From: Fusobacterium sp.
Lineage (GTDB): Bacteria > Fusobacteriota > Fusobacteriia > Fusobacteriales > Fusobacteriaceae
DNA: 33,763 nt
Direction of reading: 5' to 3'
Assembly (NCBI RefSeq): GCF_030528405.1
Contig: NZ_JAUMYY010000018.1
Span: 1 to 33,763 of the forward strand
Shown: one piece after another, positions 19,037-30,008 of the stretch
How positions within the stretch are numbered: the stretch's first letter is position 1
How the letters are laid out: each line of letters begins with the position of its first letter
The notes under the pieces: model-generated
What the model was told of the DNA's origin: nothing
Databases searched by the model: none
What the model saw: the letters and a program-made list of their open reading frames with translations, nothing else
Program-made: the position numbers and the translations under genes

Positions 19037-19783
19037 TTATTTTCTTTTTAATGTTAATATATTTTCTTTATCTTCTTTAGTTATTCGTAGAGATTCTCTA
19101 ATTTTTTGTATTGATTTATTAACAGTCCAATTATCAAGCTTACATCCTTTCAAAAAGCTATGTGTCTGTTCTTTAAATTTTATATAGCAAATAGATAAAA
19201 GCCAAGCTTTTGCCATTTTTACATAGTAATGTTCATTTTTTATATGTTCACAAATTCTAAAAATATCTTCTAAATATTTGTCCTCGACATAATATTCAAG
19301 AAGGCTCACTAAAATGAATCTAAGTTCCCAAGGATTTTCAGAATCAATTTTAGGTAAAAGAAAGTCATAGAAAGCGTCCTTATTTTTTCTTACAAATTTT
19401 GCAGAGCTTAAAGCACAATCACACAATGCCCAATTATCAATAAGGTGTATAACTTTATCAATTTTATCAAGCTTATCTTTAAAGTCTTCCTTTATTTCAC
19501 AACAAACTATAGAATAAATAAGCTTCTCTTCAAAGTATAAAATCTTATTTTTTTTTAACATTTTTTCAAAAATTTTCAAATAATTTAAGTAATCACCTTT
19601 AACTATTTCTTTTGCTATTTTTCTAATTATAGGAACTCTAATACCTATTAGGGAATTTATGTCAATAGCTATTATTTTTGCATTAAATTCTCTATATTTT
19701 AAATCTTGTTCTTGAAATAAAAATTTTATAAATTTGGAATATTCTTCTTCATTTTTTATGTTTTTAAGAAAATTTTCTTCCAT
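19037..19783 (-). CDS. DNA alkylation repair protein, AlkD-like
   Basis: HEAT-repeat DNA glycosylase family that removes bulky or cationic alkylated bases. In Bacillus cereus AlkD, as I recall its numbering, W109, D113, R148 and W187 line the active site. Here W118 and D122 (NWALCD), R155 (PWELR) and W194 (KAWLLS) keep that spacing within two residues. The 248 residues are all helical in appearance. GGAGGCTAAGAA precedes the ATG. It sits 49 bases upstream of uvrA, so a shared repair transcript is likely. Confidence 0.87.
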   Translation of the reverse strand: MEENFLKNIKNEEEYSKFIKFLFQEQDLKYREFNAKIIAIDINSLIGIRVPIIRKIAKEIVKGDYLNYLKIFEKMLKKNKILYFEEKLIYSIVCCEIKEDFKDKLDKIDKVIHLIDNWALCDCALSSAKFVRKNKDAFYDFLLPKIDSENPWELRFILVSLLEYYVEDKYLEDIFRICEHIKNEHYYVKMAKAWLLSICYIKFKEQTHSFLKGCKLDNWTVNKSIQKIRESLRITKEDKENILTLKRK

Positions 19784-19803: not shown

Positions 19804-21348
19804 TTACCAAATATCATTTGCAAAACTAGTGAAGCCAGCAGATGTTGAAAAATATTTAGCATCTATTGGTCTATCAGAATGTATAAGAATTTGACTTTCA
19901 GTTTCTTCAATGGCTTTAGTAGCATCTTCATTTTCAACTTGATTATTATAAACTTGACTTTCAACAGTATCTTTTATGTGAAAACCATATTGGGCATATT
20001 TTTGCTTTTGAATATCGCTTACCGCATAAGTACGAGCTGCAACAGCTTGAGCCTTTAAGGCTTCTAAACCGAAACTTCTTGGCATTTCACTTGGTACGAC
20101 CTGCAAAAGATATTTTTCAATATCAAGACTATTAATAACTCTAAGTGCTTTCCCTACAGCAGAAATAGTCAAAGTTCCACGATATTTCGGAGCAGATGTA
20201 TGACCTTTTACAACTGGACTAAGTGTCAGATAGTAACCTTTAGCATAGAAATTTAGTGGTTCATTTGTAGAATAATTTTTTCCTTTTGAAGTGCTTATAT
20301 TTATTTTTCCACCTTTATTAGCTATATCAACTTTTTGATTTTCATCAAGGCTTATATCAATATCTCCATTAAAGATTCTTAATTTTCCAGAACTTGAAAC
20401 AGTAAGTTTATTGTGATCCAAATTTCCATTGGATGAAGAAGTTATACCAACTTTAATTTCTGTATTTTTACCTAAAATTTTAGAAACATTTACAAGTTTA
20501 GCATCTTTATAGTATCTCTTAAGTATATCTTTATAATCATTTCCTCTTTGAGATAGAGTATATGCTGCATATTGAGGCATTCCTGCTCCATGACCATAGC
20601 CTGCACCATAAATATTTATATATCCATTTTCTTCTTCTAAAGCAAGATGTGCAGAAGGTAAAGAAACAACAGAATTTACAAGAGGTTTAGATGAATATTC
20701 ATTAGTTGTTCCCTTTGCACCTAAAAGTTGATTATTTGTAGCTAATAATCTTCTGACATTGTACTCTTTAGTAAGAAGATATTTACCATTTGAACTTGTG
20801 ATAAGAAGGTGAGTGATAATACCTGAAACACCTCTTGCAACAACTTCAACATTCTTTACTTTTCCAACCTTGGAAATAGGCTTTTGCACCCAATTATTAT
20901 TTTCCAAAGTGAATACATTTCTATGATTAGCTTTTGAAATTTCAGCTAATTTAGTTTCAATTTTAGAATAAAGTTCAGCCTTTTTTATACTTGTCTTCCA
21001 TCTCCAATAAGAAGAGGAGTCACCAAGACCTCTTAAATTTAAATTTTTGTAATATTCTAATACTTTTTTTTCATTGAACTTTTTAAAAAGTGAAAAATTT
21101 ATAGAACTATCATCATTGTCATTAACAGGAACCAAATAGTCTATCATATTACCGTAATTATTTACTGGAAGAGGTAGACCAAGTTCTTTAAAAGCAGAAT
21201 ATTCTAAATCAACTTTTTTCTTAACAGTTTCACTAGAACCCTTAGGTATATAGACATTTTTTGGTTTTCCTTTAGGTTTTACTGGAGCTTTAGAGCAAGC
21301 AAAAAGGAAAAAACAACAAATAATGACATAAAAAATATTTTTTTTCAT
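19804..21348 (-). CDS. SpoIID/LytB-family lipoprotein with circularly permuted domain order
   Basis: Probable lytic transglycosylase acting on peptidoglycan in the periplasm. A lipoprotein signal ends at the lipobox LFAC (Cys18). Residues about 66-290 resemble the second half of classical SpoIID: DYLVPVNDND, a WRW segment, then GAGYGHGAGMPQY (248-260) and ILKRYYKDAKL. Residues about 297-514 resemble the first half: IKVGI, YRGTLTI, VVPSEMPRS with the probable catalytic Glu421, AARTYAV, VESQVYNN and FSTSAGFTSFANDIW at the extreme C-terminus. In Bacillus SpoIID the PSEMP half comes first. GGGAGG lies about 11 bases before the ATG. It lies 18 bases after kdsB and 20 bases before the AlkD-like gene. 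Confidence 0.88.
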   Translation of the reverse strand: MKKNIFYVIICCFFLFACSKAPVKPKGKPKNVYIPKGSSETVKKKVDLEYSAFKELGLPLPVNNYGNMIDYLVPVNDNDDSSINFSLFKKFNEKKVLEYYKNLNLRGLGDSSSYWRWKTSIKKAELYSKIETKLAEISKANHRNVFTLENNNWVQKPISKVGKVKNVEVVARGVSGIITHLLITSSNGKYLLTKEYNVRRLLATNNQLLGAKGTTNEYSSKPLVNSVVSLPSAHLALEEENGYINIYGAGYGHGAGMPQYAAYTLSQRGNDYKDILKRYYKDAKLVNVSKILGKNTEIKVGITSSSNGNLDHNKLTVSSSGKLRIFNGDIDISLDENQKVDIANKGGKINISTSKGKNYSTNEPLNFYAKGYYLTLSPVVKGHTSAPKYRGTLTISAVGKALRVINSLDIEKYLLQVVPSEMPRSFGLEALKAQAVAARTYAVSDIQKQKYAQYGFHIKDTVESQVYNNQVENEDATKAIEETESQILIHSDRPIDAKYFSTSAGFTSFANDIW

Positions 21349-26907: not shown

Positions 26908-26942
26908 TCTTATATAAAATTGTAATCGGAGGAATATTGAAA

Positions 26943-29900
26943 ATGAAAAACTACAGATATAAATTATTTTTTATAACATCTTTATTAATAAGTACAAACC
27001 TACTAGCAAGTTACAAGGTTGAGAGAACTTATGAGAATGGAGCTTATGAAGATGTATTATTAAAAAATAAAGGCATAAATAATTTTACTAAAACAAGTGA
27101 GGAGAGAATAGATCCTTTAACAGGAAAGAGAAAGCCTCTTTTATCAGAAGCAAATTTTATTCCTATGGCTCAGTTGGACGAAGAAAAAAGATTAGTAAAA
27201 GCCAATAAAAAGAAATTTTATAGTATAAATGAGCTTGAAGATTTAGATTCTGAAACTAAAAATACTATAAATAAAGAGCTTAGAACAGCAGATAAAAGAT
27301 TTTATTTTGGAAATGGTAACAGAATGTTGAACTTAATTTTTCTTGATACAAACGCTTTTGAAGAAGAAACTAAGAAAAATAAAGGAACATTAGTCGATGG
27401 AGGATATATATTTCAAGAAAAAATAAAGGGAACAAATGAAAATGCTTATACTTCAATAAGTAAGGAAGAATATGAAAAAAATTATAAAGGTAAGACTAAT
27501 GATGAAATTGTAAAACATTTAAAAAATCATTTGAAAGATAAAATGAAAATAGATAGTGTAATAAAAAATGGTAAACTGTATGATACAGATGGTAATGAAA
27601 TTTTTTGGAATGTTAATATAGATGAGCGTGGTGAAGTTTTCACTGAAATAAGCTTATATGAAGAATTTAAAAATAGTAAAAGATATCCTTATTTTTTAAG
27701 TACAGATGGAAGTATCTATGTAGACAATAAGAAGTCAGTGATAGAAAAAGGAGTACTCGTACAAGGTAAAAAATTAACAGATACAAAGGAATGGCAGAAC
27801 TATAATAAAAAAATAGAAGCTGAAATTAAAGCAGGAAAATCTTTAGAGGAAGCAAAGAAAAGTTATTCTAAACAAGCTTTCGAAGAAGATTTAAAAAAAT
27901 TAGAGAAAGCTTCTTCTGTCCCAGCTGAGGTGAAAGAAAAAAGAATAAAAGAAATAGAAGGAAAATTAAGAGGCATTGATAGATGGTTTGACTATGACAT
28001 ATATATAAGTCGTCATAAATTATCATTAGGTTTAGATTATGCAAAAATAAATGGTAATCCAAAGTACAAGGCTATATTAGCAGAAATAGAAGAACTTTAT
28101 AAATTAAAAACAGAGGTAGATCCGAGAGTAGCCTTTGATAAAAAATGGGAAGGTTTATACATAAAAGAAGATGGACATGGAAGTGGTATATACGCAGAAG
28201 GAAAACTTAGTTTAATTGAAGAGGCTAAATATATAGAATTTCGTGGAAAAGGAAGAGTTGAAGGAACTGTAGACTTAGGAGAGGGTTATAATATTTTATC
28301 TATAAGAGAGGCAGTTACGGGTGAGGGAACAAATATTGTTTTTGCTCCTTCTGCAAAGTTAAAAAATGTAACAAAGTTATTAGTAGGAACTCATTTTAAT
28401 GATGATGTAAAGACCTCTCGTTCAGGGAGATATTCGGTTGCCTTTGAAGTTGAAAAAAATGATACAGAAACACAGAAAGCCAGAAATGAAAAAGGTGAAT
28501 TAATTCACCATGCTCTTTATAATTCAGATCAAAAAATGCTTTTTAATGATGTGACAAAAGGTTCAGAAAAAACTAAGGATAGGGCTTTACAGTTTATGGT
28601 AGCTAACTTTAATAAAGATGAAATTATAAATTTGGGAAGAGCTATGGAATATACTTATTCAACGGATACAGGAATGAGAACGGATATTATGCAAGTAGTT
28701 TCTGATTCTATAGCACATGAAATAACAGTTCCTACAAGAAAAGCAAGTCCAGAGGAAATAAAGGCAGGCAAGGCGAGCTTTGAAATAAAAGAAGGACTCT
28801 TTAATGATAGGCAAGAGAAGGATTTGATAACAATAAAATCTGATGAATATTGGAAGAATAAAAAAGCCACAAAAGATGGAAGTAATTCAATAGCGATAGT
28901 TAAAATAAAAGATAGTATAGAAGGACTAGATCAAAAATATGAGGAATTTTATAAGAGCTTAAAAAACAGTGATTCTTTAGGAACTTTTGCAAGAACATTT
29001 ACAACAACTAATAAAAAAACACTACAAGGTGGCACAAGAGAAGAAGAAGCACTGTTAGAGTTTAAGAAGATGGCAAAGCAATATACTGAAAAAAATATCT
29101 ACAGTCGTTTAAATAAATTTGCCAGAGATGAAATGCAATTGTTTTCTATGATAGCATTTCACAATGAAGCAAATATGCTTGGGCAAGGGAATATGCACTA
29201 TGGAGGTTCTCTTACAAATAGAATAGTGAAGAAAGATATCAAAGGAAATATATCTGGTATGTATATGTTAGTAAGTAGAGATTTAGATTACGATCTACAG
29301 GGAGGAATTATTTTTGGGGGTTTTGGAACAAAACTGAATGAAGGTCCTCTTGAATCAACTGCTTCCAAGAATGATACTGTTTACTTAGGAACTTACTTAA
29401 ATAAAAAATTTGCTTCTTCATTTAATCTTATAGGTGGAATGGCAATACAAAATGGAAGATATGAAGTGAGTAGGATAGCTAAAAATAAATATCAAACATT
29501 AAAATTTACAGGTAAAGGAAGAATAAAAGGACTGGATAGCTATTTAGGTTTTGTATACAGTTATCAACTTCCTCGAGAAATTTCATTGAGACTTAAATCT
29601 AAATTGTCATATCAATATATAAATCAAGGAGCTATGAAAGAAAATTCTGAAACAGGAGCAGATATCAGTGTAAATAGGCAAAATTTCCAATACCTAACTG
29701 CAGAAGTTGGACTGGATTTAACAAAAAAATTATACGAATATGGTATGTTAAGTCAGATGAGAGGAGGAATATCCGTAGTAAGAGGTTTACATGGATATAA
29801 TAATAAGGATTTAGTTGGAAAGATTAATAACTCAACAAGTTCTTTTAAAATAAGTGGAGATAAGGAAAAAAATAATTTTATAAAAATATCCTTAGGTTAT

Positions 29901-30008
29901 GATGTAATAAGAGATTCAGGGATATTATATGGAATAGAAGGTGGATATATGAAAAACTCTGCTACTGATAATATAGAAATAGGAGCCAAAGTTGGGTATA
30001 AATGGTAA
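26943..30008 (+). CDS. Large autotransporter-like surface protein, partner of the TonB receptor
   Basis: I do not recognise a named family. A signal peptide ends near NLLAS. Residues to about 360 are highly charged with helical, coiled-coil-like stretches. A short beta-rich part (about 390-450: GIYAEGKLSLIEEAK, KGRVEGTVDLG) resembles autotransporter passenger repeats. The last 275 residues look like a type V-like beta-barrel with alternating strands, ending in GAKVGYKW with a C-terminal tryptophan. The frame opens at TTG 26937; CGGAGGA (26927-26933) has better spacing for ATG 26943 (1021 residues). It follows the receptor after 35 bases with no terminator between. A role in capturing or releasing the receptor's ligand is only an inference. 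Confidence 0.75.
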   Translation: MKNYRYKLFFITSLLISTNLLASYKVERTYENGAYEDVLLKNKGINNFTKTSEERIDPLTGKRKPLLSEANFIPMAQLDEEKRLVKANKKKFYSINELEDLDSETKNTINKELRTADKRFYFGNGNRMLNLIFLDTNAFEEETKKNKGTLVDGGYIFQEKIKGTNENAYTSISKEEYEKNYKGKTNDEIVKHLKNHLKDKMKIDSVIKNGKLYDTDGNEIFWNVNIDERGEVFTEISLYEEFKNSKRYPYFLSTDGSIYVDNKKSVIEKGVLVQGKKLTDTKEWQNYNKKIEAEIKAGKSLEEAKKSYSKQAFEEDLKKLEKASSVPAEVKEKRIKEIEGKLRGIDRWFDYDIYISRHKLSLGLDYAKINGNPKYKAILAEIEELYKLKTEVDPRVAFDKKWEGLYIKEDGHGSGIYAEGKLSLIEEAKYIEFRGKGRVEGTVDLGEGYNILSIREAVTGEGTNIVFAPSAKLKNVTKLLVGTHFNDDVKTSRSGRYSVAFEVEKNDTETQKARNEKGELIHHALYNSDQKMLFNDVTKGSEKTKDRALQFMVANFNKDEIINLGRAMEYTYSTDTGMRTDIMQVVSDSIAHEITVPTRKASPEEIKAGKASFEIKEGLFNDRQEKDLITIKSDEYWKNKKATKDGSNSIAIVKIKDSIEGLDQKYEEFYKSLKNSDSLGTFARTFTTTNKKTLQGGTREEEALLEFKKMAKQYTEKNIYSRLNKFARDEMQLFSMIAFHNEANMLGQGNMHYGGSLTNRIVKKDIKGNISGMYMLVSRDLDYDLQGGIIFGGFGTKLNEGPLESTASKNDTVYLGTYLNKKFASSFNLIGGMAIQNGRYEVSRIAKNKYQTLKFTGKGRIKGLDSYLGFVYSYQLPREISLRLKSKLSYQYINQGAMKENSETGADISVNRQNFQYLTAEVGLDLTKKLYEYGMLSQMRGGISVVRGLHGYNNKDLVGKINNSTSSFKISGDKEKNNFIKISLGYDVIRDSGILYGIEGGYMKNSATDNIEIGAKVGYKW

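What the first reader, a model, noticed from the sequence alone, without database searches (positions are those of the whole stretch)
19804..21348. SpoIID-family protein with its two halves swapped (circular permutation)
In Bacillus SpoIID the order is PSEMP, ARTY, SQVY, FSTS-x-G-x-T...W, then PYL...WRW-like, GHGxGMSQ and HYY. Here, after the lipoprotein signal, the block from YLVP through WRW, GHGAGM and RYYKDAKL comes first (about 66-290). The block IKVGI, YRGTL, PSEMP (Glu421), ARTYA, SQVYNN, FSTSAGFTS follows, and the protein ends exactly at the tryptophan where the classical halves meet. The junctions fit a clean circular permutation with all conserved motifs kept, so the enzyme may still fold and act. 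The organism appears to be a non-sporulating diderm, so a role in ordinary wall remodelling is likely.
Basis: partly seen in the sequence, partly recalled or inferred. Interest (0 to 1): 0.8.

Follow-up and report, generated by a model that had tools for sequence, protein, structure and literature searches.

The report
Circularly permuted SpoIID cell-wall enzyme
A cell-wall-cutting enzyme (SpoIID family) in Fusobacterium and its close relatives is made with its two halves in swapped order, yet keeps every catalytic motif; it arose once and took the place of the normally ordered version, so it is a natural example of an enzyme re-wired by circular permutation.

Summary
Confirmed. The 514-aa lipoprotein at 19804-21348(-) is a true circular permutant of the SpoIID/LytB fold, cut between the conserved Trp that ends the catalytic half and the Gly that opens the GHGxG half. 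Rotated, it is 37% identical over 451 residues to a normally ordered Brevibacillus protein, with 86% secondary-structure agreement; AlphaFold2 gives pLDDT 86, pTM 0.83. It is not an assembly error: of 77 SpoIID-bearing Fusobacteriota genomes, 44 (8 genera) carry only the permuted form, 33 only the normal form, none both. On an rpoB tree the permuted genomes form one clade (99/97). Their permuted gene sits behind kdsB; the ancestral site (mltG-DUF4080-spoIID-tilS-ftsH) survives without spoIID. The permuted protein groups with a long 'YFRWK' Bacillota subfamily (100/99), not with the displaced fusobacterial SpoIID (AU p = 0.002). So a permuted enzyme displaced the ordinary one. Most likely it is an active lipid-anchored lytic transglycosylase (Glu421) of vegetative wall turnover; activity is inferred, and the Glu421-GHG contact was not measured. 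In passing: Mycobacteriales SpoIID proteins show a second, differently cut permutation. No paper in the searched library joins SpoIID with circular permutation.

The parts
19804..21348 (-). Permuted SpoIID/LytB protein, 514 aa, lipoprotein
   Evidence: ORF; PF08486 94.6 bits; TIGR02669 176.1 bits; AF2 model pLDDT 86
21289..21348 (-). Lipoprotein signal peptide and first mature residues (1-20), lipobox Cys18 (LFAC-S)
   Evidence: Sequence; a Cys in a lipobox-like context is found in the first 60 residues of all 41 distinct permuted proteins aligned
21157..21288 (-). Disordered tether and short ordered linker, residues 21-64 (SxFKxxxLPxP)
   Evidence: AF2 pLDDT below 50 at 16-46, 88 at 51-60; not detectably a remnant of a first catalytic half
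20479..21156 (-). Swapped GHG half, residues 65-290 (GN..YL, YWRWK, GHGAGM, RYY): equivalent to the C-terminal half of normal SpoIID
   Evidence: 228-293 to 4rwr 260-325; half-profile search; rotation alignment
20455..20478 (-). New joint between old C-terminus and old N-terminus, residues 291-298
   Evidence: Alignment with normal-order L077
20182..20457 (-). IKVGI beta domain, residues 298-389
   Evidence: Shared with the MRVGIMT..DH domain of Bacillota relatives
19807..20181 (-). Catalytic half, residues 390-514, PSEMP Glu421, ending at Trp514
   Evidence: PF08486 400-489; Glu421 aligns to chain position 77 of 5i1t = C. difficile Glu101 by my numbering (PMC6221140)
21367..22119 (-). kdsB (CMP-KDO cytidylyltransferase), conserved upstream neighbour of every permuted gene whose neighbourhood was examined
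   Evidence: PF02348 200 bits; neighbourhoods; F. animalis annotation
19037..19783 (-). DNA alkylation repair-like protein, downstream neighbour in close relatives only
   Evidence: PF08713 51.9 bits

Best explanation
This is a genuine circular permutant of the long ('YFRWK') subfamily of SpoIID/LytB peptidoglycan enzymes. A normally ordered gene of that subfamily was permuted once, at the Trp|Gly bond between its two halves, probably by tandem duplication followed by loss of the first catalytic half and a stop codon directly after the second Trp (inferred). The permuted gene, placed behind kdsB in the ancestor of crown Fusobacteriaceae, displaced the ordinary fusobacterial spoIID, which was then lost from between the DUF4080 radical-SAM gene and tilS. 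The product is exported, lipidated at Cys18, folds into the same compact two-half structure, and most likely works as a lytic transglycosylase: Glu421 acts as the general acid/base on MurNAc-GlcNAc bonds of glycan strands stripped of peptides by AmiC-type amidases, during ordinary growth and division rather than sporulation. Shown here: permutation, conserved motifs, predicted fold, single origin, displacement. Inferred: enzymatic activity, substrate, cellular role, route of permutation.
For: Reversed segment order against three solved SpoIIDs. Rotation restores a continuous family match and gives 36.6% identity over 451 columns to Brevibacillus L077, with secondary-structure agreement 86% against a shifted-baseline mean of 34%. 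AF2 pLDDT 86, pTM 0.83. Sequential Foldseek sees only half of SpoIID in the permutant (5i1t TMt 0.35, 171 columns) but the whole in normal L077 (TMt 0.73, 377 columns). 44 genomes permuted, 33 normal, none both. Permuted genomes form one rpoB clade, 99/97, one change. kdsB adjacency in the permuted loci examined, mltG-DUF4080-spoIID-tilS-ftsH in the normal ones, and that cluster without spoIID in 12 of 12 permuted genomes, including the window's own. Permuted + long Bacillota proteins one clade 100/99; permuted + fusobacterial normal rejected, AU p = 0.002. Catalytic SEM motif in 61 of 61 permuted ORFs, GHGxG motif in 58; 57 of 61 end in Trp with the stop next. A two-module tandem in Alkalihalobacillus L101 shows that the duplication intermediate can exist. 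Amidase_3 in 14 of 14 genomes, SpoIIP in none. C. difficile E101A abolishes activity (PMC6221140); a SpoIID homologue of a non-sporulating diderm is a septal lytic transglycosylase (PMC6635528).
Against: No activity data for any permuted protein. Catalytic-site geometry across the two halves was not measured. Long branches: the catalytic-half-only tree does not recover the permuted group as one side of a branch (3 changes, few columns), although the combined trees and the species tree do. A search for a remnant of the duplicated first half in the linker was negative, so the duplication route is not shown. A divergent second copy in genus g2 lacks the terminal Trp (L039).
Confidence: 0.82

Rival explanations
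1. The protein is a domain-shuffling chimera: a GHG half from one SpoIID-like gene fused to a catalytic half from another, rather than a permutation of one gene.
For: The halves are separable HMM units; the route of origin is not documented by an intermediate in Fusobacteriota.
Against: Both halves best match the same long Bacillota subfamily: catalytic half about 125-182 bits and nearly full-length GHG half about 100-213 bits in the same proteins. The cut falls at the same bond for both ends. Rotated full-length identity is 37% with one normal protein. The product has exactly one copy of each half.
Confidence: 0.1
2. The protein folds but is no longer catalytic: a glycan-binding lipoprotein or an amidase enhancer, as B. 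subtilis LytB is described (LytB function from general knowledge).
For: Relationship to the LytB-type branch of the family; no assay exists.
Against: Catalytic Glu kept in 61 of 61 and the GHGxG motif in 58 of 61 ORFs; invariant positions include the TSxG loop and SQxYN; displacement of ordinary spoIID suggests a shared task.
Confidence: 0.15
3. The swap is an artefact of assembly or of a single rearranged strain.
For: The window genome is a 76-contig, 91% complete assembly.
Against: Same order in 44 genomes of 8 genera, including single-contig genomes (G002, G007, G019, G074-G076) and a finished F. animalis replicon.
Confidence: 0.01

Closest known systems
Bacillota long SpoIID/LytB-domain proteins (e.g. 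Brevibacillus laterosporus L077, 618 aa; TIGR02669)
   Same: Same catalytic half, same MRVGI..DH domain, same long GHG half with GYDxxSxYFRWK and GGGxGHGVGMSQ; one clade 100/99; 37% identity after rotation
   Different: Halves in normal order; an extra N-terminal domain that the permutant lacks; an insert of about 10 residues at the Trp-Gly joint in many
SpoIID of endospore formers (B. anthracis 4rwr, C. difficile 5i1t; lytic transglycosylase)
   Same: Catalytic Glu motif, TSxG loop, GHGxGM, HYY; fold (foldseek probability 1.00)
   Different: Normal order; short GHG half; sporulation role with SpoIIP; the C. difficile zinc site is particular to that species (PMC6221140)
Ordinary fusobacterial SpoIID (basal Fusobacteriaceae and other families of the phylum)
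   Same: Same enzyme family, one per genome, non-sporulating hosts
   Different: Normal order, about 300-400 aa, mltG-tilS-ftsH locus; grouping with the permuted proteins rejected (AU p 0.002)
Mycobacteriales SpoIID/LytB proteins (Tsukamurella, Rhodococcus, Nocardia)
   Same: Also circularly permuted, GHG segment first
   Different: Cut just before the GHG strand (about residue 270 of 4rwr) instead of after Trp; a separate event
SpoIID of Waddlia chondrophila (Chlamydiae)
   Same: SpoIID acting in a non-sporulating diderm, at the division septum (PMC6635528)
   Different: Order of its halves not examined here; highly divergent sequence

Membership tests
SpoIID/LytB domain family (PF08486 / TIGR02669) | Score above the curated cut-off | tested here: met
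   PF08486 94.6 vs 23 bits; TIGR02669 176.1 vs 83.3
SpoIID/LytB domain family (PF08486 / TIGR02669) | Catalytic Glu in xEM motif followed by EALKAQ and ARTY | tested here: met
   Glu421 invariant in 15 and 16 aligned proteins; SEM in 61/61 ORFs
SpoIID/LytB domain family (PF08486 / TIGR02669) | Catalytic half precedes GHGxG half | tested here: not met
   Order reversed in all permuted proteins of 44 genomes; hence filed as a permuted variant, not an ordinary member
SpoIID/LytB domain family (PF08486 / TIGR02669) | Same three-dimensional fold | tested here: inconclusive
   AF2 pTM 0.83; top PDB hits are SpoIID with probability 1.00 but only half aligned, as a sequential aligner must for a permutant; no permutation-aware superposition was possible
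SpoIID/LytB domain family (PF08486 / TIGR02669) | Lytic transglycosylase activity on denuded glycan | not testable with these tools
   Needs purified protein
Stage II sporulation protein D, equivalog (TIGR02870) | Score over the equivalog cut-off 234.75 bits | tested here: not met
   137.8 bits, and 152.4 after rotation
Stage II sporulation protein D, equivalog (TIGR02870) | Sporulation partners present (SpoIIP, Spo0A) | tested here: not met
   SpoIIP absent in 14 genomes; Spo0A model below cut-off everywhere
Circular permutant | Rotation restores colinearity with normal homologues without loss of the conserved core | tested here: met
   451 aligned columns, 36.6% identity, secondary-structure agreement 86%
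Circular permutant | Single copy of each half in one chain | tested here: met
   One GHG-half and one catalytic-half match per protein

The most novel reading that the evidence does not exclude
SpoIID is a fold that nature permutes repeatedly: once at Trp|Gly in crown Fusobacteriaceae, where the permutant replaced the ancestral enzyme outright, and independently just before the GHG strand in Mycobacteriales. In the fusobacterial case the permutation re-sites the membrane anchor from the beta domain to the joint between the two halves, which may set how the enzyme reaches glycan strands from the outer membrane.
Probability: 0.5. Interest if true: 0.75.

Novelty: new variant of a known kind. Interest (0 to 1): 0.62.

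Why it matters
Natural circular permutation at one exact bond, placed on one branch of a tree, with the displaced ancestral gene visibly missing from its old site, is rare evidence of how an enzyme can be re-ordered and win. The protein is in the Fusobacterium nucleatum complex (F. animalis, F. vincentii), where it is labelled only 'SpoIID/LytB domain-containing protein', so domain annotation and search tools that assume one order see half of it. It makes testable whether permutation changed the anchoring, activity or partner needs of a wall enzyme. The second, differently cut permutation in Mycobacteriales points to a general property of the fold.

Tried and rejected
Assembly artefact: rejected by the 44-genome survey. 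N-terminal linker (residues 44-66) as a remnant of a duplicated first catalytic half: hhalign gave no alignment better than shuffled columns (74 of 200 shuffles scored as high); by eye a YFS..G pattern recurs, but I do not claim it. In-place replacement of the old spoIID: rejected, because the loci differ. Inheritance from the ordinary fusobacterial spoIID: rejected by AU test, with the caution that long branches are present. Permuted forms in Bacillota: none seen in 399 evenly drawn genomes (the best listed matches are split halves; weaker matches were not listed) nor among the Bacillota loci in the best 80 of the genome-contig scan. dN/dS could not be computed (numerical error). Literature: no paper in the searched library holds both 'SpoIID' and 'circular permutation', or SpoIID with Fusobacterium nucleatum and peptidoglycan; many subscription papers, including the SpoIID structure paper, are not held.

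Full report
WHAT IS THERE. The gene at 19804-21348 on the minus strand encodes 514 residues and stops directly after Trp514. It has a lipoprotein signal (Cys18), a disordered tether, then the GHG half (about 65-290), a short joint, an IKVGI beta domain (298-389) and the catalytic half (390-514). Pfam sees only the catalytic part (PF08486, 400-489). NCBIfam TIGR02669 hits in two stretches, the best being 404-514 = model 2-111. Against solved SpoIIDs the order is reversed: query 392-514 fits 4rwr 50-183 and query 228-293 fits 4rwr 260-325; a profile of 15 permuted relatives reaches E = 2.6e-41.

PERMUTATION TEST. Moving residues 66-298 behind residue 514 raises TIGR02669 from 176.1 to 198.7 bits and makes the best stretch continuous across the joint (model 2-178). 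After rotation the protein aligns over 451 columns at 36.6% identity with the normally ordered Brevibacillus laterosporus protein L077; Glu421 falls on Glu271, Trp514 on Trp364, GHG on GHG, Tyr280 on Tyr607. Predicted secondary structures of the two independently modelled proteins agree at 86% of columns, against a mean of 34% and a maximum of 47% for shifted strings. AlphaFold2 gives pLDDT 86.0 and pTM 0.83 for the window protein and 79.1 / 0.76 for L077. Foldseek, which keeps chain order, finds SpoIID first for both (probability 1.00), but covers only 171 columns with TMt 0.35 for the permutant and 377 columns with TMt 0.73 for L077. That is the signature expected of a permutation. I could not measure the distance from Glu421 to the GHG loop.

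EXACT CUT. In normal fusobacterial proteins the Trp is followed by GN..PYL, GT..PYL or GG...PYL. In many permuted proteins the catalytic half ends with that Trp and the N-terminal half begins GN/GK/GS/GT..YL. So the cut lies at the Trp|Gly bond. Of 61 permuted ORFs (46 distinct), 57 end in Trp with the stop codon next; the exceptions are two records of one genome with an internal stop a few codons earlier (the reading frame continues to ...SYVW) and two records of a divergent second copy.

DISTRIBUTION. Of 98 Fusobacteriota genomes, 77 have SpoIID. I classified every one by half-profiles: 44 genomes, 8 genera of one family, are permuted; 33 are normal; none has both. Named permuted members include Fusobacterium gastrosuis, F. 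mortiferum and Cetobacterium, and F. animalis and F. vincentii. In a tree of rpoB the permuted genomes form one clade (99/97; one change of state), nested within genera that keep the normal form. In Bacillota, 399 evenly drawn genomes gave only separate half-matches among the listed results; where I checked genes with both halves listed, they are in normal order, and all Bacillota loci of the 80-locus scan are normal.

DISPLACEMENT. Normal fusobacterial spoIID lies in mltG - (DUF4080 radical SAM) - spoIID - tilS - ftsH. Permuted genes lie directly behind kdsB. In 12 of 12 permuted genomes examined, the mltG - tilS - ftsH cluster is intact and spoIID is gone; DUF4080 is kept in six of them (genera g2, g4, g8, g10, g13) and is also lost in the other six (g1, g6, g11). 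The window's own genome shows the same (L259), so the missing gene is not explained by incompleteness.

ORIGIN OF THE SEQUENCE. Bacillota carry a short SpoIID type and a long type with GYDxxSxYFRWK. The GHG half-profile matches the long type over nearly its whole length (about 100-213 bits in most) but the short type and the normal fusobacterial SpoIID only over the last 60-100 positions. In a 63-protein tree the permuted proteins are one group (96/92) and join the long Bacillota type at 100/99; grouping them with normal fusobacterial SpoIID is rejected (AU p = 0.0023). Transfer from Bacillota is likely, but its direction is inferred. One Bacillota protein (Alkalihalobacillus, L101) carries two complete modules in tandem, which is what the duplication-and-trimming route to a permutation needs; a remnant of that route in the linker was sought and not found.

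HOW IT LIKELY WORKS. Glu421 aligns without a gap to chain position 77 of 5i1t; with a 330-residue chain ending at 354 (my numbering) this is Glu101, whose mutation abolishes C. difficile SpoIID activity (PMC6221140). The surrounding motifs are invariant. SpoIID needs glycans denuded by an amidase; SpoIIP is absent from 14 Fusobacteriota genomes, but an AmiC-type Amidase_3 is present in all. Spo0A scores below cut-off in all. A SpoIID homologue in a non-sporulating diderm acts at the division septum (PMC6635528). I therefore infer a lipid-anchored lytic transglycosylase of vegetative wall turnover. The residue after Cys18 is Ser, which by the E. coli rule (general knowledge, untested in Fusobacteriota) would send it to the outer membrane. 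Shown: order, conservation, predicted fold, phylogeny, displacement. Inferred: activity, substrate, place, route.

VERDICT. The finding is correct and larger than stated. It is a new variant (circular permutant) of a known enzyme family with one origin and clean replacement of the ancestral gene. No paper in the searched library reports it; a subscription paper could.

Noticed in passing
L268:2303-4447 (Tsukamurella), L273:1749-3296 (Rhodococcus ruber), L269 (Nocardia farcinica): Mycobacteriales SpoIID/LytB proteins carry a different circular permutation: the GHGxG...HYY segment comes first (Tsukamurella fragment residues 7-52 = 4rwr 273-318, residues 146-344 = 4rwr 53-268). The Tsukamurella gene lies next to glf; the Nocardia copy seems to lack the rest of the GHG half.
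   Followed up: partly
L101:3779-7648: Alkalihalobacillus pseudalcaliphilus ORF of 1290 aa with two complete SpoIID modules in tandem.
   Followed up: partly
L022/L075, L039/L076 (genus g2): A second, divergent permuted copy in two genomes; in L039/L076 the terminal Trp is replaced by ...SDQIIK although the catalytic motifs are kept.
   Followed up: partly
L066 about 5383 and L013: In one genus-g11 genome the permuted gene has an in-frame stop about 17 codons before its usual end (PADA*YFSASSGFIESASYVW): a real nonsense change, recoding or a sequence error.
   Followed up: partly
L228-L234, L255-L266: Conserved mltG-DUF4080-spoIID-tilS-ftsH cluster in Fusobacteriota, from which spoIID, and in genera g1, g6 and g11 also DUF4080, has been removed.
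   Followed up: yes
Genera g17, g18, g20, g24, g26 of family f4: These genomes (Leptotrichia-like by size and kinship, my guess) have no SpoIID of either order.
   Followed up: no
window 26937-30008 and 129-1286: An autotransporter (about 1021 aa, Autotransporter beta-domain) beside a TonB receptor, and a YadA-type trimeric adhesin at the window edge.
   Followed up: no
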